This document shows, piece by piece, positions 1 to 8,883 of a DNA stretch of 64,000 bases; the first letter of the stretch is position 1; each line of letters opens with the position of its first letter. The notes under the pieces are model-generated. The model was not told the DNA's origin. It worked only from the letters and a program-made list of their open reading frames with translations, and ran no database searches. Source of the stretch: Azoarcus sp. Aa7 (GTDB lineage: Bacteria; Pseudomonadota; Gammaproteobacteria; Burkholderiales; Rhodocyclaceae); the NCBI RefSeq assembly GCF_014822185.1, contig NZ_QVLR01000001.1:1-64000 (forward strand), read 5' to 3'. A program made the translations under genes and the position numbers.

Positions 1-123
1 GGCATGGAGCCGTATCTGTGGCTGCGCCACGTGCTGCGGGCGCTGCCTACCGCGACCACCGTCGAACACTTCGAGGCCCTCCTGCCCTGGAATCTCAAGG
101 CTGAGCATCTGATCACAGCGTAG
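1..123 (+). CDS. tnpC: IS66 family transposase TnpC, C-terminal fragment
   Basis: Frame 1 is open from the window edge to TAG at 121-123 and gives 40 residues beginning GMEPYLWLRHVLRALP and including EALLPWNL. This is the usual end of the IS66 DDE transposase, where a GxEPYxYLRHVL segment is followed by a TVExxEALLPW tail. TnpC catalyses transposition of the element. Only the tail is visible, so it cannot be judged whether the full gene is intact. The stop codon sits 36 bases before the inferred right terminal repeat, the normal compact arrangement for this family. Confidence 0.75.
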   Translation, partial: GMEPYLWLRHVLRALPTATTVEHFEALLPWNLKAEHLITA

Positions 124-159
124 CGAGTCCGGGAAGGATGGGGTTCGTGGAGCGCTTAC
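1..159 (+). mobile_element. IS66-family insertion sequence, right end (partial)
   Basis: The first 123 bases encode a typical TnpC (IS66 transposase) C-terminus. Thirty bases later the sequence GCGCTTAC (152-159) matches the complement of the GTAAGCG terminal inverted repeat known for IS66 elements. The sequence then turns directly into the body of the SPFH gene. I infer that the element ends at 159 and that most of it lies upstream of the window. The left end and the expected 8-bp target duplication cannot be seen here; if the end is right, the duplication would be GACTGATC (160-167). Confidence 0.7.
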
Positions 160-1193
160 GACTGATCGACTTCGTCAAGAAGCAGTTCATCGACATCATC
201 CAGTGGACCGAGGACGACAGCGACACGCTGGTCCATCGTTACCCGATGGCGGACGCCGAAATCCAGTATGGCGCCAGCCTGACCGTCCGCGAGTCGCAGA
301 TGGCGGTCTTCGTCAATGAAGGCAAGGTGGCCGACGTGTTCGGTCCCGGGATGTACACGCTCACCACGCAGACGCTGCCGGTCCTGACTTACCTGCAGAA
401 CTGGGACAAGCTCTTCGAATCGCCCTTCAAGTCGGATGTCTATTTCTTCTCGACGCGCGGCCGGCTCGACCGCAAGTGGGGCACGCCACAGCCGGTCACC
501 GTGCGCGACAAGGAATTCGGCATGGTGCGCCTGCGCGCGTTCGGCATCTATGCCTATCACCTGACCGATCCGAAGCTGTTCCACACGACGATTTCCGGCA
601 CGCAGGAACGCTATACCGGCGAACTGCTGGAATCGCAGCTGCGCAACACCATCGTCGCCCACATCGCCGACCTGTTCGGCGAATCGGGGGTGCCGTTCAT
701 CGACATGGCGAGCAACCAGCTCGAGTTCGGCAACGCCCTCAAGACCAAGCTGGAGCCGGTCTTCGCCGGCTACGGGCTGGCGCTCGACAGTTTTGCACTG
801 CAGAGCATTTCGCTGCCCGAGGAAATCGAGAAGGTGCTCGACGCGCGGATCGGCATGAACGTCGCCGGCGATCTGCACCGCTACACGCAGTTCCAGACCG
901 CCAATGCGATCCCTCTGGCGGCGCAGAACGAAGGCGGCGTCGCGGGCGCCGGCGCCGGGCTGGGGGCGGGCATTGCCATGGGGCAGGCGATGGCGACGGC
1001 GATGGGAGCCCCGGCCGCGGCAACGCCTACTCCGGCAGCGCCGGCGGCGCCTGCTGCAGCCGCCGACGCCGCGCCGAACGTCGATGAGGTGCTGGCGACA
1101 CTCGAAAAACTGCACGCGCTGGTCGGCAAGGGCATCCTGTCGCAGGCCGAATTCGAGGCCAAGAAAGCAGAACTGATGAAGAAGATCGGCTGA
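138..1193 (+). CDS. SPFH-domain protein with C-terminal SHOCT-like segment (YdjI / 'virion core protein' family)
   Basis: 351 aa. Residues ~10-240 form an SPFH/band-7-like module of the YdjI type (FIDIIQW near the start, then LTVRESQMAVFVNEGKVAD and GPGMYTLTTQTLPVL). A Gly/Ala/Pro-rich linker (~250-312) leads to a C-terminal short helical SHOCT-like segment (~318-351). Proteins of this type scaffold membrane patches and in Bacillus act with PspA-like proteins; that role is family knowledge. The first seven codons appear to come from the IS66 right end, so the native start (expected just before LIDFVKKQF) has been replaced. GGGAAGG at 131-137 abuts the ATG but is well spaced for GTG at 147, an alternative start. 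It heads a close-packed cluster running to speD. Confidence 0.82.
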   Translation: MGFVERLRLIDFVKKQFIDIIQWTEDDSDTLVHRYPMADAEIQYGASLTVRESQMAVFVNEGKVADVFGPGMYTLTTQTLPVLTYLQNWDKLFESPFKSDVYFFSTRGRLDRKWGTPQPVTVRDKEFGMVRLRAFGIYAYHLTDPKLFHTTISGTQERYTGELLESQLRNTIVAHIADLFGESGVPFIDMASNQLEFGNALKTKLEPVFAGYGLALDSFALQSISLPEEIEKVLDARIGMNVAGDLHRYTQFQTANAIPLAAQNEGGVAGAGAGLGAGIAMGQAMATAMGAPAAATPTPAAPAAPAAAADAAPNVDEVLATLEKLHALVGKGILSQAEFEAKKAELMKKIG

Positions 1194-1218
1194 TCCGGCT
1201 GCGCGCTTTCCACCACAC

Positions 1219-3138
1219 ATGGCCAAGACTGCTGCCTGCCCGTCCTGCGGCGCCCCGGTCGTCTTCCGTTCGGTTGCCTCTGTGCTCGCCGTCTGCGAGT
1301 ACTGCCAGAGCACGCTCGTCCGACAGGGGGCCAACCTCGAGAATCTCGGCAAGATGGCCGAATTCCTCGACGACCGCTCGCCCTTGCAGCTCGGCACCGA
1401 AGGCCGCTGGAACGACCGGCATTTCGGCCTGATCGGCCGCCTGCAGCTGCGCTACGACGCCGGTCACTGGAACGAGTGGCACCTCCTGTTCGACGACGGC
1501 AGGAGCGGCTGGCTCTCGGAAGCCGGCGGCGAGCTGGTGATCTCCGAGCCGATGGGGCTGGACGGCACCGTGCCGGCCTTCGAGGCCATCGCGCTCGACG
1601 ACGCCATTCGCCTGCGCGGCCAGAGTTACACCGTCACCAACATCCTCCAGGCCGAATGCGTCGCCGGCGCCGGCGAGTTGCCGTTCAAGGTCGGCGGCGG
1701 ATATCCGGCGCCAATGGTCGATCTGCGTGACAGCGCCGGCCGCTTCGCGACGCTCGACTACAGCGACGCCGCCGACATGAACGGCCGGCCGCTGGTCTTC
1801 CTCGGCGAGGTGGTCGAAGCCAAGGCGCTGGCGCTCGCCAACCTGCGCGATCCGGCGGCGGCAAGCGGCACGCCCACCGTCAAGGCGAAGGTCTTTCAGT
1901 GCCCGTCCTGCGCCGCCCCGCTGTCGGCCCGCTCGCCCGACATCCTGACGGTGGGCTGCGGCAGTTGCGGCACCCTGATCGACACCGGCAAGGAAGTGGC
2001 GAAGCAGGTCGCCAAGGTGCTCGCTTGCGAGCGTTTCGAGCCGCTGCTGCCGCTCGGCGCTACCGGCACGCTGCGCGGCGAGGTGCTCGAGGTGATTGGC
2101 GTCATGCAGCGTCGGATGACCTGCGAAGGCGTCCAGTACTTCTGGCGCGAATATGCACTCACCACGCCGGACGGCAGCATCCGCTGGCTGACCGAGTACG
2201 ATGGTCACTGGAACCTGGCGCGCGTTCTTGCCAAGTCCGTCGCCGCCCTCGGCGCCACGGTAAAGTACGGTGGCCAGAGCTACCAGCACTTCCAGACCTA
2301 CACGGCCCACGTCGACCACGTCGAAGGCGAATTCCCCTGGCGGGTGCGCGCCGACGAGAGCGCACAGGTGCACGATTACGTGGCGCCGCCGGCCATGCTG
2401 TCGCGCGAAGTCACCGACCGCGAATCGACGTGGACGCAGGCCGAGTACCTCGATCCGGAGGAGCTGCGGCAGGCGTTTTCCGCGACGGCGCTGCCCGCAC
2501 CGCGGGGGGTTTACGCCAACCAGCCGAATCCGCAGGCTGAACGACATCGCGGCGTAAGCCGCCATTTTTGGCAGCTGTTCCTCGCGGCCTGGCTGATTCA
2601 TCTCCTGCTGCTGGTTTTCGGCCCCGACACCATGTTGAAGGAAAGCGTGGCCTACAGCACTACCAACGACGAGCCGCGCCTGTCGCCCGGATTCCCGCTG
2701 CCCGACGGCGCCCGCCGGCTTGAAGTGGCGCACGAGGCGAAATTCAGGAATTCATGGGCCGCCTTCAACATGACCCTTGTGAACAAGACCTCGGGCGAAT
2801 CCTGGCAGGCGCAGCGCGAACTCAGTTATTACGAAGGCGTCGATGGCGGCGAAAGCTGGTCGGAGGGTTCGAAGAGCGATGAAATCGTATTCACCGACCT
2901 GTCGCCCGGCACCTACATGCTCGCCGAGGACATCGAGACCGAGCCGGGGCGCCCGGCCATCGTCGCGGAACTGCGCGTAGCCCACCCGGGGCCGCGCTGG
3001 TCGTCCCTGCTCATCCTGCTCCTCGGGCTGGCGACCGTTCCCTTGTACACCTTCACCCGTCACCGCGTATTCGAAGTCGCCCGCTGGGCGGAAAGCGATC
3101 ATCCGATCGTCTCCTCCAGCGACGATGACGACGACTGA
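1219..3138 (+). CDS. DUF4178 protein with two zinc ribbons and a C-terminal membrane anchor
   Basis: 639 aa. An N-terminal zinc ribbon (C7/C10, C26/C29) precedes one DUF4178-like unit (~45-200). A second zinc ribbon (C228/C231, C247/C250) precedes a second DUF4178 unit (~270-400). Two hydrophobic segments (~449-468 and ~594-614) flank a ~125-residue region probably outside the membrane, and the protein ends in an acidic SSSDDDDD tail. DUF4178 has no established biochemical role that I know; family members are repeatedly found beside SpeE/SpeD-like and DUF350 genes. The start is 25 bases after the SPFH stop. The zinc ribbons suggest a cytoplasmic binding scaffold tethered to the membrane, which is inference. 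Confidence 0.8.
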   Translation: MAKTAACPSCGAPVVFRSVASVLAVCEYCQSTLVRQGANLENLGKMAEFLDDRSPLQLGTEGRWNDRHFGLIGRLQLRYDAGHWNEWHLLFDDGRSGWLSEAGGELVISEPMGLDGTVPAFEAIALDDAIRLRGQSYTVTNILQAECVAGAGELPFKVGGGYPAPMVDLRDSAGRFATLDYSDAADMNGRPLVFLGEVVEAKALALANLRDPAAASGTPTVKAKVFQCPSCAAPLSARSPDILTVGCGSCGTLIDTGKEVAKQVAKVLACERFEPLLPLGATGTLRGEVLEVIGVMQRRMTCEGVQYFWREYALTTPDGSIRWLTEYDGHWNLARVLAKSVAALGATVKYGGQSYQHFQTYTAHVDHVEGEFPWRVRADESAQVHDYVAPPAMLSREVTDRESTWTQAEYLDPEELRQAFSATALPAPRGVYANQPNPQAERHRGVSRHFWQLFLAAWLIHLLLLVFGPDTMLKESVAYSTTNDEPRLSPGFPLPDGARRLEVAHEAKFRNSWAAFNMTLVNKTSGESWQAQRELSYYEGVDGGESWSEGSKSDEIVFTDLSPGTYMLAEDIETEPGRPAIVAELRVAHPGPRWSSLLILLLGLATVPLYTFTRHRVFEVARWAESDHPIVSSSDDDDD

Positions 3139-3143
3139 GCATC

Positions 3144-3290
3144 ATGGTCAGGATCTATCTTTTACTCGGTCTCATTGCCCTGTCGGTCTTTTCCTGGGCT
3201 CAGTATCGCGGCGTCGGCCTGTTCGACGACGAGGCGCCGTCGTCCCAATCCCGCAGCGGCAGCGGTGGACATCGCAGCTATCACAAGTAG
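3144..3290 (+). CDS. 48-aa single-pass membrane peptide
   Basis: A short open frame between the DUF4178 and DUF350 genes encodes 48 residues: an N-terminal hydrophobic helix (about residues 3-19, IYLLLGLIALSVFSWA) followed by a short hydrophilic Ser/Gly/His-rich tail. ATG is six bases after the upstream stop (TGA 3136-3138), and its TAG stop (3288-3290) is embedded in the TAGGAGG ribosome-binding site of the next gene, so translation is probably coupled in both directions. No known family is recognised. Small membrane peptides at this position would be easily missed by gene callers. The tight spacing is the main evidence that it is real. Confidence 0.65.
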   Translation: MVRIYLLLGLIALSVFSWAQYRGVGLFDDEAPSSQSRSGSGGHRSYHK

Positions 3291-3299
3291 GAGGCTTCC

Positions 3300-3515
3300 A
3301 TGCCCGATTTCTTCGACCCCAAGATCCTCTTCAACTCGCTGGTGTATTCGATCCTCGGCGTCGTCATGTTCTGGGTCTCGTTCATCGTCATCGACAGGCT
3401 CACGCCCTACGACCTCTGGAACGAAATCGTCGCGAAGAAGAACCAGCCGCTGGCGACCGTGGTGGCAGCGATGTGCCTGGGCATCGCAATCATCGTCGCC
3501 GCCGCGATCCACTGA
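3300..3515 (+). CDS. DUF350 family small membrane protein
   Basis: 71 aa with two transmembrane helices (~9-31 and ~52-70) separated by the characteristic DUF350 segment DRLTPYDLWNEIVAKKNQPLA. It equals one DUF350 repeat; the E. coli YjfL type carries two, so this one may dimerise. DUF350 proteins are integral inner-membrane proteins of unknown activity that cluster with PspA-like, glutathionylspermidine-synthase-like and polyamine genes (family knowledge). TAGGAGG lies eight bases before the ATG, the best ribosome-binding site in this cluster. Its partners here, SPFH, DUF4178, SpeE-like and SpeD, fit a membrane-associated polyamine system. Confidence 0.85.
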   Translation: MPDFFDPKILFNSLVYSILGVVMFWVSFIVIDRLTPYDLWNEIVAKKNQPLATVVAAMCLGIAIIVAAAIH

Positions 3516-3533
3516 CAGCAATTCGGCCAGAAC

Positions 3534-5099
3534 TTGCAAGAATATCCGTCGCCCCCCGCTGACGCGGAGACGCTCGGGCCGCGCGAACGCGCCAGCCCGC
3601 TGCAGGTCGCACTGCTCGCCTCGGTCTTTATCGTCGCCGCATGCGGCCTCGCCTACGAACTGATTGCCGGCGCGCTCGCCTCCTACCTGCTCGGCGATTC
3701 TGTCACCCAGTTCTCGACCATCATCGGCACCTATCTGTTCGCGATGGGGATCGGGTCCTGGCTGGCCAAGTACATCGGACGCGACCTCGTCGGACGCTTC
3801 GTGCAGATCGAGATCGCGGTCGGCCTGCTCGGTGGCTTCGCGGCGACCGGACTGTTCCTCGCCTTCGCCGGCAACTTCGGCCCCTTCCGGGTTCTCCTCT
3901 ACGGTATCGTGCTCCTGATCGGCATCCTGGTCGGACTCGAAATCCCGCTGGTGATGCGCATCCTGAAGCGCGAAGTCGAATTCCGCGAACTCGTCTCGCG
4001 CGTCCTGTCCTTCGACTACCTCGGCGCCCTCGCCGTCTCGCTGCTGTTCCCGCTGGTGCTGGCGCCACACTTGGGCCTCGTCCGCACCGGGCTCCTGTTC
4101 GGTCTCGCCAACACCCTGATCGCGCTCTGGGCGCTACGCCTCTTCCGCGATCAGCTACGCCGCCGGCGGGGGCTGCATCTCGCCGCGTGGAGCGGCATCG
4201 CCGTTCTGTGCGCCGGACTCGCCGGGGCCGGCCACGTCACCACGCTGGCCGAGGGCTGGCTCTACGCCGATGACGTCATACACGCCGAAAACAGCCCCTA
4301 CCAGCGCATCGTCGTCACGCGCTGGCGCGACGACATCCGCCTCTTCCTGAACCAGAACCTGCAGTTCAGCTCGCGCGACGAATACCGCTACCACGAAGCG
4401 CTGGTGCATCCCGGCATGACGATGGGCCCGGCGCCGAAACACGTGCTGGTCCTCGGCGGCGGCGACGGCCTCGCCGTGCGCGAAATCCTCAAGTACCCGC
4501 AGGTGGAGTCGGTCACTCTGGTCGATCTCGACCCGGCGATGACCCGGTTGTTCTCGGCCGCGCCGCTGCTGCGCAAACTGAACGGCGATGCGCTCGCCCA
4601 CCCGAAGGTCCGGGTCATCAACGCCGATGCGGCACGGTGGCTGGAAGACGGCGAACAGAGTTTCGATTTCGTCATCGTGGATTTTCCCGACCCCTCCAAC
4701 CACGCCATCGGCAAACTCTACTCGACGGGCTTTTACCGCCTGCTCGACAAGCGCCTGCGGCCGCAGGCCCGCTTCGTCGTGCAAGCCACCTCGCCCTACT
4801 ACGCCCGCGAGTCGTTCTGGACCGTCGTCGCCACCCTCGAAGCCAGCGGTTTCCAGACCGCGCCCTACCATGCGCTGGTGCCCTCCTTCGGCGAATGGGG
4901 CTACATCCTTGCCGCCCGCGCGTTGCCGCCGCTGCCCGAGCGCATCGAAGTGCCAACACATTTCATCACGCCGGAAACGCTGCCCGACCTCTTCCGCTTC
5001 CCGGCCGACATGGCCCGCGTGCCGGCCGAACCGAACCGCATGAACGAACAGACGCTGGTGCGCACCTTCGAGCGCGAGTGGCGGCACGTCCAGCGCTGA
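3534..5099 (+). CDS. speE: Membrane-bound polyamine aminopropyltransferase (spermidine synthase-like)
   Basis: 521 aa. The N-terminal ~245 residues contain about seven transmembrane helices; the C-terminal half is a spermidine-synthase fold. The AdoMet-type glycine motif LGGGDGLAVRE lies near 307-317 and VDFPDPSN near 382-389, where the DxxD-type acidic residues of aminopropyltransferases sit. The enzyme would move the aminopropyl group of decarboxylated AdoMet onto an amine at the membrane. The acceptor cannot be read from sequence, and this membrane subgroup differs from soluble SpeE. The only start after the previous stop is TTG at 3534. SpeD, which makes the co-substrate, is two genes downstream. 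Confidence 0.85.
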   Translation: MQEYPSPPADAETLGPRERASPLQVALLASVFIVAACGLAYELIAGALASYLLGDSVTQFSTIIGTYLFAMGIGSWLAKYIGRDLVGRFVQIEIAVGLLGGFAATGLFLAFAGNFGPFRVLLYGIVLLIGILVGLEIPLVMRILKREVEFRELVSRVLSFDYLGALAVSLLFPLVLAPHLGLVRTGLLFGLANTLIALWALRLFRDQLRRRRGLHLAAWSGIAVLCAGLAGAGHVTTLAEGWLYADDVIHAENSPYQRIVVTRWRDDIRLFLNQNLQFSSRDEYRYHEALVHPGMTMGPAPKHVLVLGGGDGLAVREILKYPQVESVTLVDLDPAMTRLFSAAPLLRKLNGDALAHPKVRVINADAARWLEDGEQSFDFVIVDFPDPSNHAIGKLYSTGFYRLLDKRLRPQARFVVQATSPYYARESFWTVVATLEASGFQTAPYHALVPSFGEWGYILAARALPPLPERIEVPTHFITPETLPDLFRFPADMARVPAEPNRMNEQTLVRTFEREWRHVQR

Positions 5100-5106
5100 T
5101 CCCCCG

Positions 5107-6720
5107 ATGCTGCGTCGCCAGTTCCTCGCCACCGCTGCCGGCAGCCTCGCCATGCCGCTGATCGCCTGCTCGCGGAAAACGGAAAGCGGGGTGCCACCGG
5201 GAATGTTGCACGACAGCGGGCTGGAGCTCGGCCACCGCCTGCGCGACCGCCGTCCGTTTCCCCCGGCGACCGAGGAACGCCGCATCGACACCCTGATCGT
5301 CGGCGCCGGCATCGGCGGACTCTCGGCCGGCTGGTGGCTGCAAAGAAAGGGCTACGCCGACTTCCGGATCGTCGAACTGGCCGACCGTCCGGGGGGCAAC
5401 GCGCGCTACGTCGACCGCAGCGAAAACCCGGTTTCGGCCCATCCGCTCGGCGCCCACTACCTGCCGCTACCGACCCGCGAAGCGCGCTACGTGCGCGAAT
5501 TGCTGGCCGACCTCGATGCACTTGCCGGCGATCCGCAGGCCGCACGACCGGTCTATGACGAGCGCCGGCTCTGCCACGCACCGCAGGAGCGTCTCTACCG
5601 CGACGGCTTCTGGCAGGAAGGCCTGCTCCCCCAGTTCGGCCTGCCACGCGCCGAGCGCGCCGAGATCACCCGCTTTCTCGAGGCGATGGAGGCGTTCCGC
5701 ACCGCCCGCGACGCCGAGGGCCGGCGCGCCTTCGCCCTGCCGGCCGATCTCTCCTCGCCCGACCCGCGCTGGCGAAATCTCGACCGGATCAGCATGGCCG
5801 ACTGGCTGCGCGATGAAGGTTTTCGCTCGCCCGCGTTGCACTGGTACGTCGATTACGCCTGCCGCGACGATTTCGGCACCACGCTCGCCGATACCTCGGC
5901 CTGGGCCGGCATCCACTACTTCGCCTGCCGCAACGGCGAGGCGGCCAACGCCGCCAGCGACAGCGTGCTGACGGCACCCGAGGGCAACGGCTGGATCGTG
6001 CGCGCGCTGGCTGAACGACTGGCCGCCCAACTCGCCACCGGGAGCACCGTCATCGACGTGCGTCCAGGACGGCCGCACGAGGTCCAGGTCTGGCTCGCTG
6101 CCGAAGCACGCACGGTGCGCTACCGCTGTCGCCACCTCGTCTGGGCCGCCCCGCTTTTCCTGCTGCCGCACTTGGCGTCGGATCTGCCGGCGCCACTCGT
6201 GGCCGCCACCCGCGCCGCAAGCTATGCCCCCTGGCTGGTCGCCAACCTGACCCTCGCCGAGCCCCCGCATGGCGGCGCCGGGGCGCCGCTCGCCTGGGAC
6301 AACGTCCCCTACGGCAGCACCGGACTCGGTTACGTCGTCGCCACCCACCAGAACCTGCGCCTTGCCGACGGCCCGACCGTCCTCACCTGGTATCACGCGC
6401 TCGCGCACCAACCCCCGGCGGCCGCACGCCAGACCCTGCTCGGCACCTCACGCGAACGGTGGGCCGCCAGCATCCTCGGCGAACTCGGTCGCCTGCACCG
6501 CAACCTGCCCGCCGCGACCCGCCGGATCGATGTTTTCCGGCACGGCCACGCGATGATCCGCCCAACACCCGGCGCCCTCTGGCACGGCCCGCGGCAAGCG
6601 GCGCTGACCGCGCTCCCGCCGGGCTTCCACCTCGCCCACGCCGACGCCTCCGGTCTCTCGCTGTTCGAAGAAGCCAACTACCGCGGCGTCATGGCCGCCG
6701 AACGGATTTTGCGTACATGA
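5107..6720 (+). CDS. FAD-dependent amine-oxidase-like protein with Tat/lipoprotein signal
   Basis: 537 aa. The N-terminus carries a twin-arginine-like RRQFL (residues 3-7), a hydrophobic stretch and a lipobox LIAC with Cys at 21, so export as a folded flavoprotein and lipid anchoring is likely. A Rossmann FAD motif VGAGIGGLSAG lies at ~65-75, followed by the RPGGNAR segment typical of NAD(P)-binding flavin monoamine oxidases and phytoene-desaturase-like enzymes. The C-terminus (HADASGLSLFEEANYRGVMAAERIL) is a normal FAD-binding end. Because it is coupled to speE and speD (ATGA overlap with speD), a polyamine or aminopropyl product is the likely substrate. That is inference; no substrate residue is diagnostic. 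Confidence 0.75.
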   Translation: MLRRQFLATAAGSLAMPLIACSRKTESGVPPGMLHDSGLELGHRLRDRRPFPPATEERRIDTLIVGAGIGGLSAGWWLQRKGYADFRIVELADRPGGNARYVDRSENPVSAHPLGAHYLPLPTREARYVRELLADLDALAGDPQAARPVYDERRLCHAPQERLYRDGFWQEGLLPQFGLPRAERAEITRFLEAMEAFRTARDAEGRRAFALPADLSSPDPRWRNLDRISMADWLRDEGFRSPALHWYVDYACRDDFGTTLADTSAWAGIHYFACRNGEAANAASDSVLTAPEGNGWIVRALAERLAAQLATGSTVIDVRPGRPHEVQVWLAAEARTVRYRCRHLVWAAPLFLLPHLASDLPAPLVAATRAASYAPWLVANLTLAEPPHGGAGAPLAWDNVPYGSTGLGYVVATHQNLRLADGPTVLTWYHALAHQPPAAARQTLLGTSRERWAASILGELGRLHRNLPAATRRIDVFRHGHAMIRPTPGALWHGPRQAALTALPPGFHLAHADASGLSLFEEANYRGVMAAERILRT

Positions 6721-7115
6721 AAGGACATCACATCCTCGCCGAACTGCACGACTGCGACTGCCCAAGAACGCTGCTGCACGATCCGCACGCCCTGCAGGCG
6801 CTGTGCCGCACGGCCTGCAATGCCGGCGCACTGACCGTGGTTGCCGAGGCTTTCCATGCCTTCGGAACGTCCGATGCCCCGGCCGGCGCCACCGGCGCCG
6901 TGGTCCTGGCCGAGTCGCACCTCGCCATCCATACCTGGCCGGAAATCGGCCGCAGCGGGGCCGTCACCCTCGACCTCTACGTCTGCAACTTCAGCCGCGA
7001 CAACCGCGAGAACGCCGAACGGGCGTTTGCCCACCTCGTCGCCACGCTTCAACCGCGGCACATCCATCGCCAGGACGTTGCCCGCGGGGTCCTGCCAGCC
7101 TTCCATCCAACGTAA
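6717..7115 (+). CDS. speD: S-adenosylmethionine decarboxylase proenzyme (prokaryotic class 1b type)
   Basis: 132 aa, the size of the short SpeD proenzymes. The self-cleavage site is clear in ESHLAIHTWPE: Glu66-Ser67, with Ser67 becoming the pyruvoyl group, processing His72 and catalytic Cys90 in DLYVC. Compared with the Thermotoga enzyme there are three extra residues between the HTWPE strand and the DLxxC strand. The product, decarboxylated AdoMet, is the aminopropyl donor for the SpeE-like protein. ATG overlaps the previous stop as ATGA. It is the last gene of the cluster; the next gene lies convergently. Confidence 0.9.
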   Translation: MKGHHILAELHDCDCPRTLLHDPHALQALCRTACNAGALTVVAEAFHAFGTSDAPAGATGAVVLAESHLAIHTWPEIGRSGAVTLDLYVCNFSRDNRENAERAFAHLVATLQPRHIHRQDVARGVLPAFHPT

Positions 7116-7306: not shown

Positions 7307-7705
7307 CTAACAGGATGCGAGGCGATTCACCCTCGCAACGGCGTCGATCGCGATCCGCGCACCGAGCGGCAGCCGGGATACCTCCACGCACGAGCGCGCG
7401 GGGAAATCCTTCGGGAAGTAGTTGGCATACACCGCATTCACGGCTGACAAGTCATCCATGTCGGTCAGGAAGACGGTCACGCGAACGACCTGATCCAGAG
7501 CGGATCCGGCTGATCGCAGAATCAGCTCGATGTTGTGCAGCGCTCGATTGGCCTGCGTCACTGCATCCGGACCGACCAGCGAACCGGTCGCCGGATCCAG
7601 CCCCAGTTGCCCGGACGTCCACACCCACCCATCCATCAGGACCCCCTGCGAACACGGGCCGACAGGAATGGGGGCGTCCTTGATGAGGACGATCCGCTTG
7701 CTCAT
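7307..7705 (-). CDS. ridA: RidA/YjgF family enamine/imine deaminase
   Basis: 132 aa starting MSKRIVLIKDAPIPVGPCSQ. The signature PARSCVEVSRLP near the C-terminus contains the Arg that binds the carboxylate of 2-aminoacrylate-type substrates. RidA proteins hydrolyse reactive enamines and imines released by PLP enzymes in the cytoplasm. The start was chosen because GGAGG lies seven bases upstream and the family begins here; a longer in-frame extension to 7918 has no family match. It shares strand with epd 137 bases upstream and converges with speD. Confidence 0.9.
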   Translation of the reverse strand: MSKRIVLIKDAPIPVGPCSQGVLMDGWVWTSGQLGLDPATGSLVGPDAVTQANRALHNIELILRSAGSALDQVVRVTVFLTDMDDLSAVNAVYANYFPKDFPARSCVEVSRLPLGARIAIDAVARVNRLASC

Positions 7706-7842
7706 GCACACCTCCGCAGTGACATCGCGTTCCGCCATACACCAGCGGTTGCCGGCCGCCCCCATTCGCGCCACCGGTCGCCGGCTCCGCTGCTCGAAAG
7801 TTACTACGCCGGAGCGAAATCCTTCATCGAAGAGCTTCAGCC

Positions 7843-8883
7843 TCAGTCGTAAGGCCGACGCCGGAGGCGTCCGGCCCAGAACGCCGCGACGTCCAGCATG
7901 CGCCGCGAGAAGGCCCATTCATTGTCGAACCACAGCATCAGGTTGATGAGGCGCTCGCCGCTGGCGCGGGTCTGGCTGCCGTCGACGATGGCGGAGAAGC
8001 CGTTATGGTTGAAGTCCACCGACGCGTGCGGGCCGTCCGAGTACGCGAGCACGCCGTGGCGGTCCTCCTCGGCGACGCGGCGCATCAGGCGGTTGATGGT
8101 CTCGACCGTGGCGTTGCGCCGAAGCGTCACCGTCAGGTCGATGGCCGAGACGTTCGGCACCGGAACGCGGATCGCCTTCGCCGCAATCCGCCCTTCGAGC
8201 GCCGGCAGCAGGCGGGTGATGCCTTTCGCCAGGCCGGTCTGGACCGGGACCATCGACTGCATCGCCGAGCGGGTCATGCGCAGGTCGGTGGCGTGGTAGC
8301 CGTCGATCACCGGCTGGTCGTTCATCACCGAGTGCAGCGTCGTGGTCAGCGCGTGCTCGATGCCGAACGTCTGTTCGAGGATCGCGAGGATGGGCACGAC
8401 GGCATTGGTGGTGCAGGAGGCGGCCGAGACGATGCGTTCGCCGCCGTCGAGCGCCTCGTGGTTCATCCCGAATACGACGGTGCGATCGACGTCGGCGGCG
8501 CTGTGGCCGGGGTGCGAGAGCAGCAGACGCGGGCAGCCGGCGCCGAGGAAGGCTTCGAGTTCGTGCCGATAGCGGTAGCGCCCGGAAGCTTCGACGAGGA
8601 GGTCGACATTGAAGGCCCGCCAGTCGACGCCGTCGGGCGTCGTCGCGTGGGTGACGGCGATGTCCTGGTCGTCGATGTGCAGGCGGCCGTCACGGATGCC
8701 GACGGTGCCGGGAAAACAGCCGTGGGTCGAATCGAAGCGCGTGAGATAGGCCATGCTCTCGATGTCCGCCGGCTCGTTGATGGCGACGACGGAGAGCGAC
8801 TTGCGCAGCGGCGATTCGTGGAGGGCGCGCAGAAAGCAGCGGCCGATGCGGCCGTAGCCGTTGATAGCGATGCGGAAGCTCAT
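7843..8883 (-). CDS. epd: Erythrose-4-phosphate dehydrogenase (Epd-type GAPDH homologue)
   Basis: 346 aa. The Rossmann start RIAINGYGRIGR, catalytic Cys157 in SAASCTTN and His184 in TTLHSVMNDQ are all present. The segment NEPADIESMAYLTRFDSTHG and the pattern DFNHNGFSAIVDGSQTR resemble E. coli Epd more than glycolytic GapA. Epd oxidises erythrose 4-phosphate to 4-phosphoerythronate, the first step of DXP-independent pyridoxal-phosphate synthesis. It stands apart from pgk and fba here but next to ridA, which detoxifies products of PLP enzymes. A glycolytic role is less likely but not excluded by sequence alone. Confidence 0.82.
   Translation of the reverse strand: MSFRIAINGYGRIGRCFLRALHESPLRKSLSVVAINEPADIESMAYLTRFDSTHGCFPGTVGIRDGRLHIDDQDIAVTHATTPDGVDWRAFNVDLLVEASGRYRYRHELEAFLGAGCPRLLLSHPGHSAADVDRTVVFGMNHEALDGGERIVSAASCTTNAVVPILAILEQTFGIEHALTTTLHSVMNDQPVIDGYHATDLRMTRSAMQSMVPVQTGLAKGITRLLPALEGRIAAKAIRVPVPNVSAIDLTVTLRRNATVETINRLMRRVAEEDRHGVLAYSDGPHASVDFNHNGFSAIVDGSQTRASGERLINLMLWFDNEWAFSRRMLDVAAFWAGRLRRRPYD

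What the first reader, a model, noticed from the sequence alone, without database searches (positions are those of the whole stretch)
138..7115. Coupled SPFH-DUF4178-DUF350-SpeE-FAD oxidase-SpeD cluster: a polyamine-linked membrane system
Seven genes on one strand have gaps of 5-25 bases or overlap. They include two polyamine enzymes (membrane SpeE-like, pyruvoyl SpeD), an exported FAD amine-oxidase-like lipoprotein and three membrane or scaffold proteins of unknown function. DUF350 and SPFH/YdjI proteins are known to associate with PspA-like membrane-stress genes and polyamine-modifying enzymes. The arrangement suggests that decarboxylated AdoMet is used at the membrane to make or attach an aminopropylated product. 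No canonical ornithine/arginine decarboxylase is present, so the acceptor may not be putrescine. The product and role are unknown.
Basis: partly seen in the sequence, partly recalled or inferred. Interest (0 to 1): 0.8.

Follow-up and report, generated by a model that had tools for sequence, protein, structure and literature searches.

The report
Membrane aminopropyl-transfer operon, known class
A seven-gene bacterial operon that probably adds small amine groups to some component of the cell envelope; its gene set is already in print, but its enzyme looks as if it works on the outer side of the membrane, which would be new and can be tested.

Summary
In detail: seven same-strand genes, 138-7115, gaps 5-25 bases, last pair overlapping by 4. 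Correction: the first gene's apparent start lies inside an IS66 end. The association is real: in a 299-genome sample of the window's phylum DUF4178 occurs in 20, all among the 31 with membrane SpeE; the FAD subfamily occurs in 10, all among those 20. But the operon class, its band-7/SHOCT, AdoMet decarboxylase and polyamine oxidase variant, and 'aminopropylation of other substrates' are in print (PMC11237479, passages). Most likely this is an envelope-modifying aminopropyltransferase system. My addition: seven helices, charge pattern and a nearly cysteine-free catalytic domain suggest that the SpeE domain faces outward, where the Tat-signalled FAD enzyme goes. A six-crossing, inside-facing form is not excluded, and peak counting misjudged one control. 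Acceptor and product are unknown. New member of a known kind, with a testable novel reading.

The parts
1..159 (+). right end of an IS66-family element (transposase tail 1-123 and terminal repeat); contig boundary; not part of the operon but replaces its 5' end
   Evidence: Pfam DDE_Tnp_IS66_C; other genomic matches end at window base 160 and 159
138..1193 (+). SPFH/Band_7_1 protein with C-terminal SHOCT; about the first 8 residues come from the IS66 end
1219..3138 (+). DUF4178 protein: two zinc-ribbon + DUF4178 units, helix 440-466, beta-sandwich about 468-591 (outside if the zinc ribbons are inside), helix 594-623
3144..3290 (+). 48-aa protein with one hydrophobic segment, no family; like proteins found in 12 of 110 loci
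3300..3515 (+). DUF350, half-length (71 aa), two hydrophobic segments by eye
3534..5099 (+). 7TM-SpeE: seven-helix membrane domain (helices within 22-230) fused to an aminopropyltransferase domain (about 245-500); TTG start uncertain
5107..6720 (+). FAD-dependent protein of the amine-oxidase superfamily with twin-arginine signal and lipobox
6717..7115 (+). SpeD, class 1b-type AdoMet decarboxylase with processing Ser, His and Cys; only one found in this genome

Best explanation
It is an envelope-modifying aminopropyl-transfer system of a known operon class. SpeD makes decarboxylated AdoMet (dcAdoMet) in the cytoplasm (inferred from conserved residues). The 7TM-SpeE transfers its aminopropyl group to an acceptor at the inner membrane that is probably not a housekeeping polyamine (inferred). 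My best guess is that the catalytic domain lies outside: the cationic donor would pass through the seven-helix domain, whose invariant or nearly invariant residues include E42, E93, E136, R142, D161 and N193, and be used on the periplasmic face, in an EptA-like layout. The Tat-exported FAD protein then oxidises the aminopropylated product, or removes its aminopropyl group, outside (inferred). DUF4178, DUF350 and the SPFH-SHOCT protein act as sensor and scaffold (inferred from class membership).
Against: A charge-only enumeration scores six helices with C inside (9.59) above seven with C outside (7.69), so the claim rests on segment 7 truly crossing. Peak counting gave six segments in EptA, where five are known (recalled), so parity from peaks alone can fail. 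Segment 7 is below 1.6 in 5 of 64 and 1.64 in the window protein. The local flank test goes the wrong way for segment 5 (58 of 64) and is neutral for segment 3. Low Cys is not a clean marker: exported FAD 1.0% (7 proteins), SPFH 0.33% (60). The control genome of C. glutamicum has DUF4178 but no hit to either AdoMet decarboxylase family; G037 and G057 also lack both. SpeD is on the SpeE strand in only 11 of the 28 loci where it is near. No acceptor is identified. This SpeD may also serve ordinary spermidine synthesis. IS66 sits at the operon's 5' end, so its expression in this strain is unknown.
Confidence: 0.48

Rival explanations
1. Same system, but the SpeE domain is cytoplasmic: segment 7 is interfacial or re-entrant, dcAdoMet is used inside, and the membrane domain carries or flips the product out to the FAD enzyme.
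For: The donor is made inside; the charge score alone prefers it; an amphipathic helix 232-244 follows segment 7; peak counting misjudged EptA.
Against: Segment 7 averages 1.80 where the other six have 1.37-2.14, is a 20-residue helix and has inside-to-outside flanking charge in 63 of 64; domain Cys depletion.
Confidence: 0.38
2. Polyamine export and homeostasis: the enzyme makes spermidine, thermospermine or norspermidine at the membrane and delivers it to the cell surface, where the FAD protein acts as a polyamine oxidase.
For: The SpeE domain is structurally nearest to triamine/agmatine aminopropyltransferase and thermospermine synthase; P. aeruginosa speE2 has been described as a spermidine, norspermidine or thermospermine synthase, with a cited title on surface-localized spermidine (passages); the FAD profile's solved relatives include monoamine and putrescine oxidases and spermidine dehydrogenase; the genome has an OKR-type decarboxylase.
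Against: The acceptor loop differs from E. coli SpeE; Li et al. 2019 (recalled abstract, paper not held) reported no spermidine and no complementation for membrane-fused SpeE proteins.
Confidence: 0.25
3. Housekeeping: SpeD serves the cytosolic SpeE elsewhere in the genome and merely sits beside an otherwise separate membrane operon.
For: Only AdoMet decarboxylase found in the genome; soluble SpeE on another contig; two relatives with the operon (G082, G196) have their only SpeD hit in one open frame with a soluble SpeE elsewhere (the G082 frame read); SpeD is the least linked partner, 28 of 47, and on the SpeE strand in 11 of those 28.
Against: SpeD is linked in Acidobacteriota, Gemmatimonadota and Betaproteobacteria in different gene orders and overlaps the FAD gene by 4 bases here.
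Confidence: 0.15

Closest known systems
PspA/CesT-Tir-linked 7TM-SpeE, DUF350, DUF4178 operons and the band-7/SHOCT + AdoMet decarboxylase + polyamine oxidase variant (Ravi et al. 2024, PMC11237479)
   Same: Same gene families and the same proposed theme, polyamine levels or aminopropylation of other substrates at the membrane (passages).
   Different: Here no PspA/CesT gene in the cluster; half-length DUF350; DUF4178 protein with a helix-beta-sandwich-helix tail; a 48-aa extra protein. The word periplasm does not occur in the paper's main text, and the passages seen do not say on which side the SpeE domain lies.
Bacterial AdoMet decarboxylase with MFS-SpdSyn-like fusions, Li et al. 2019, Biochem J (recalled abstract; paper not held)
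   Same: AdoMet decarboxylase accompanying a membrane-fused spermidine-synthase-like protein thought not to make spermidine.
   Different: Whether it discusses sidedness or an FAD partner was not checked.
Soluble spermidine/thermospermine synthases (SpeE)
   Different: Seven-helix N-terminal domain, shortened acceptor loop, family-invariant S420, F452, G453, W455, G456, almost no Cys.
EptA / LapC layout (membrane helices plus periplasmic catalytic domain)
   Same: Works-like comparison only: charge direction at the last helix.
   Different: No sequence relationship was tested or claimed; different catalytic fold (recalled).

Membership tests
Membrane polyamine aminopropyltransferase NF002956 (PRK03612) | score above the curated cut-off over the full model | tested here: met
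   681.7 bits against 472, model positions 18-521 of 522
Spermidine synthase (functional) | aminopropyltransferase fold with donor-binding and catalytic Asp positions | tested here: met
   fold; positions aligned with E. coli SpeE, (residue roles recalled)
Spermidine synthase (functional) | acceptor loop of the P-T-Y-x-G-G type seen in E. coli SpeE | tested here: not met
   P-S-F-G-E-W-G, two residues shorter; F452, G453, W455, G456 invariant in 64
Spermidine synthase (functional) | makes spermidine from putrescine | not testable with these tools
   needs an assay
AdoMet decarboxylase class 1b | processing Ser, His and Cys, and the Pro that separates it from arginine decarboxylase forms | tested here: met
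   E-S-H-x-x-x-H-T-W-P-E and the later Cys present; criteria from PMC10407285 passages; which Pro is meant is inferred, the figure was not seen
Flavin polyamine/monoamine oxidase | FAD-binding Rossmann fold related to amine oxidases | tested here: met
   Pfam NAD_binding_8; profile of 7 sequences matches solved monoamine and putrescine oxidases, best E 7e-14
Flavin polyamine/monoamine oxidase | conserved active-site lysine (recalled) | tested here: inconclusive
   no lysine is invariant in the 7 aligned proteins, but the equivalent position was not mapped
Ravi-type 7TM-SpeE operon, band-7 variant | 7TM-SpeE with DUF350, DUF4178, band-7/SHOCT, AdoMet decarboxylase and oxidase | tested here: met
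   against the passage (the paper's band-7 protein has a 2TM segment before SHOCT, not tested here)

The most novel reading that the evidence does not exclude
The SpeE domain is an extracytoplasmic aminopropyltransferase: the seven-helix domain exports cytosolic decarboxylated AdoMet, and the outer domain adds aminopropyl groups to lipids or other envelope molecules on the periplasmic face, with the co-conserved Tat-exported FAD enzyme processing or erasing the mark. This would be a new kind of envelope charge modification.
Probability: 0.32. Interest if true: 0.85.

Novelty: new member of a known kind. Interest (0 to 1): 0.5.

Why it matters
AdoMet decarboxylase is known for polyamine synthesis. 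A membrane aminopropyltransferase linked to its own donor supply and to an exported oxidase, in loci named for six phyla in this sample (several are single metagenome contigs), suggests a second, unassigned use of decarboxylated AdoMet in the cell envelope. If the catalytic side is outside, the missing acceptor should be sought among lipids, lipid A or periplasmic polymers rather than cytosolic diamines, which makes the open question directly testable with one fusion experiment and one lipidomics comparison.

Full report
What is there. Seven frames run in one direction from 138 to 7115. Pfam and NCBIfam give Band_7_1 plus SHOCT, DUF4178 (two stretches), nothing for a 48-aa protein, half a DUF350, PRK03612 polyamine aminopropyltransferase, an NAD_binding_8 FAD protein and AdoMet_dc. 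Gaps are 25, 5, 9, 18 and 7 bases and the last two genes overlap by 4. Downstream, the next ORF with a recognisable protein (RidA-like by eye) is on the other strand.

The 5' end. Bases 1-123 encode an IS66 transposase tail. Two long matches elsewhere in the genome run up to window base 160 (C19) and 159 (C34) and no further; two short ones cover only 134-161 and 134-159. The SPFH start codon at 138 is therefore inside the IS66 end. Many relatives start like M-x-x-x-D/S-F-I/L-K-K-Q-F, so IS66 seems to have replaced only the first few codons. The window is the start of contig C1; native promoter and any earlier genes are out of sight.

Co-occurrence. The same 299-genome sample of the window's phylum (Pseudomonadota, judged by its nearest named relatives) was searched four times. 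Membrane SpeE (NF002956 over cut-off): 31 of 299. DUF4178: 20 of 299, 19 over the cut-off, all 20 among those 31. FAD subfamily (profile of 7 sequences, E up to 1e-20): 10 of 299, all among the 20. AdoMet decarboxylase PF02675: 71 of 299, 25 of the 31; of the 6 without, 3 have the class 2 family PF01536, leaving G057, G037 and G169 (71% complete). Hypergeometric values are 1e-23, 1e-13 and 1e-12, without correction for shared descent. Against a strict donor pairing: the control genome of C. glutamicum has DUF4178 but neither decarboxylase family.

Neighbourhoods. One genome-collection scan gave 80 named loci, the best of 498 relatives. Of the 47 with more than 5.5 kb on both sides of SpeE, within 9 kb lie DUF350 in 42, DUF4178 in 41, FAD in 39, SPFH in 38 and SpeD in 28; the first four together in 34. 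FAD is on the SpeE strand in 39 of 39, SpeD in 11 of 28. Among all 80, many cut by contig ends, the counts are 65, 67, 62, 53 and 39. Order and strand vary: SPFH-DUF4178-DUF350-SpeE-FAD is a common order, SpeD moves, and in one group a block SpeD-DUF4178-SPFH-DUF350 points away from SpeE-FAD. L161 (Neisseria elongata), L137 and L099 have SpeE without any of the four. On a tree of 64 SpeE proteins the 38 FAD-linked ones lie within one supported group of 46 rows (100/98) with rows named for Pseudomonadota, Acidobacteriota, Gemmatimonadota, Spirochaetota, Elusimicrobiota and Fibrobacterota (several are metagenome contigs, so some names may be wrong); label changes 7, shuffled mean 20.5. Distances of SpeE, DUF4178, SPFH and FAD trees over 49 shared loci correlate at 0.80-0.95, as expected of a module inherited together, though species descent alone could also do this.

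What is known. Ravi et al. 2024 (PMC11237479; [quoted passage not shown] they suggest monitoring of polyamine or 'aminopropylation of other substrates'. They cite Li et al. 2019 (Biochem J), which is not held; I recall its abstract as saying that membrane-fused SpdSyn-like proteins accompany AdoMet decarboxylase, make no spermidine and do not complement. So the operon and its broad interpretation are not new.

Housekeeping polyamines. The genome has an OKR_DC_1 decarboxylase whose best NCBIfam matches are arginine, lysine and ornithine decarboxylases, all below their cut-offs, and a soluble SpeE above the PRK00811 cut-off (309 against 260 bits) though below that of TIGR00417 (210 against 250). 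The SpeD here is the only AdoMet decarboxylase found. In G082, which has the operon without a SpeD nearby, SpeD is fused to a soluble SpeE elsewhere (447 aa).

Which side? Seven hydrophobic segments appear in the averaged profile of 64 SpeE proteins, segment 7 at 1.80 where the weakest of the others has 1.37 and the catalytic domain never exceeds 0.98; taken singly, segment 7 is at least 1.33 in all 64 and below 1.6 in 5. AlphaFold2 gives seven long helices (22-53, 56-80, 85-113, 118-145, 150-180, 182-203, 211-230) and a helix 232-244 before the domain, mean pLDDT 91, pTM 0.78; the last is amphipathic. Positive residues alternate: N-terminus 2.7, loops 0.23, 1.83, 0.73, 3.38, 1.09, 2.80; even loops beat odd loops in 64 of 64. 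Segment 7 has net +2.27 before and -1.09 after, in that direction in 63 of 64 with 1 tie. In E. coli controls the last segment shows +3/+1 and +6/+1 for EptA and LapC (C-out, recalled) and 0/+2 and 0/+3 for MsbA and BasS (C-in, recalled); the window protein shows +5/-1. The catalytic domain has 0.11% Cys (46 of 64 none) against 1.11% in 22 soluble SpeE, while the membrane part of the same proteins has 0.94%; the depletion holds in each clade. Seven crossings with the N-terminus inside put the domain outside. Against: charge scoring alone cannot exclude six crossings; the same peak count gave six segments for EptA instead of five (recalled), so it can misjudge parity; segment 5's local flank points the other way in 58 of 64 and segment 3 is neutral; EptA's outer domain has 10 Cys, the exported FAD proteins have 1.0% Cys and the SPFH proteins 0.33%, so Cys content is a weak marker.

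Verdict. A real, old module and a member of a class already in print. The most useful addition is the prediction that the aminopropyltransferase domain faces the periplasm, where the exported oxidase sits; I put that at about 0.5, and the fuller picture of an envelope aminopropyl mark at about 0.32.

Noticed in passing
window 1-160: An IS66 element ends inside the first codons of the SPFH gene and supplies an in-frame ATG; the contig starts within it. Other matches lie at C19 and C34.
   Followed up: partly
L202 318-1661 (G082): A 447-aa fusion of SpeD and a soluble SpeE; SpeD and SpeE matches in G270, G102 and G196 report the same open-frame length, so they are probably fused too.
   Followed up: partly
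G216, G162, G290: Membrane-SpeE genomes without a PF02675 hit carry the class 2 (eukaryote-type) AdoMet decarboxylase family PF01536.
   Followed up: yes
C. glutamicum control genome; G037, G057: DUF4178 (C. glutamicum, G037) or membrane SpeE (G037, G057) without any AdoMet decarboxylase hit; the donor there is unexplained.
   Followed up: no
L036 10842-12989: A protein that looks like a TonB-dependent receptor (by eye) lies between DUF350 and SpeE.
   Followed up: no
G000 C9 (L178): An exosortase-linked PLP decarboxylase next to an acyl-CoA ligase-like gene (by eye).
   Followed up: no
window 7307-7918 and 7843-8883, minus strand: RidA-like and glyceraldehyde-3-phosphate dehydrogenase-like genes (by eye) face the operon's end.
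   Followed up: no
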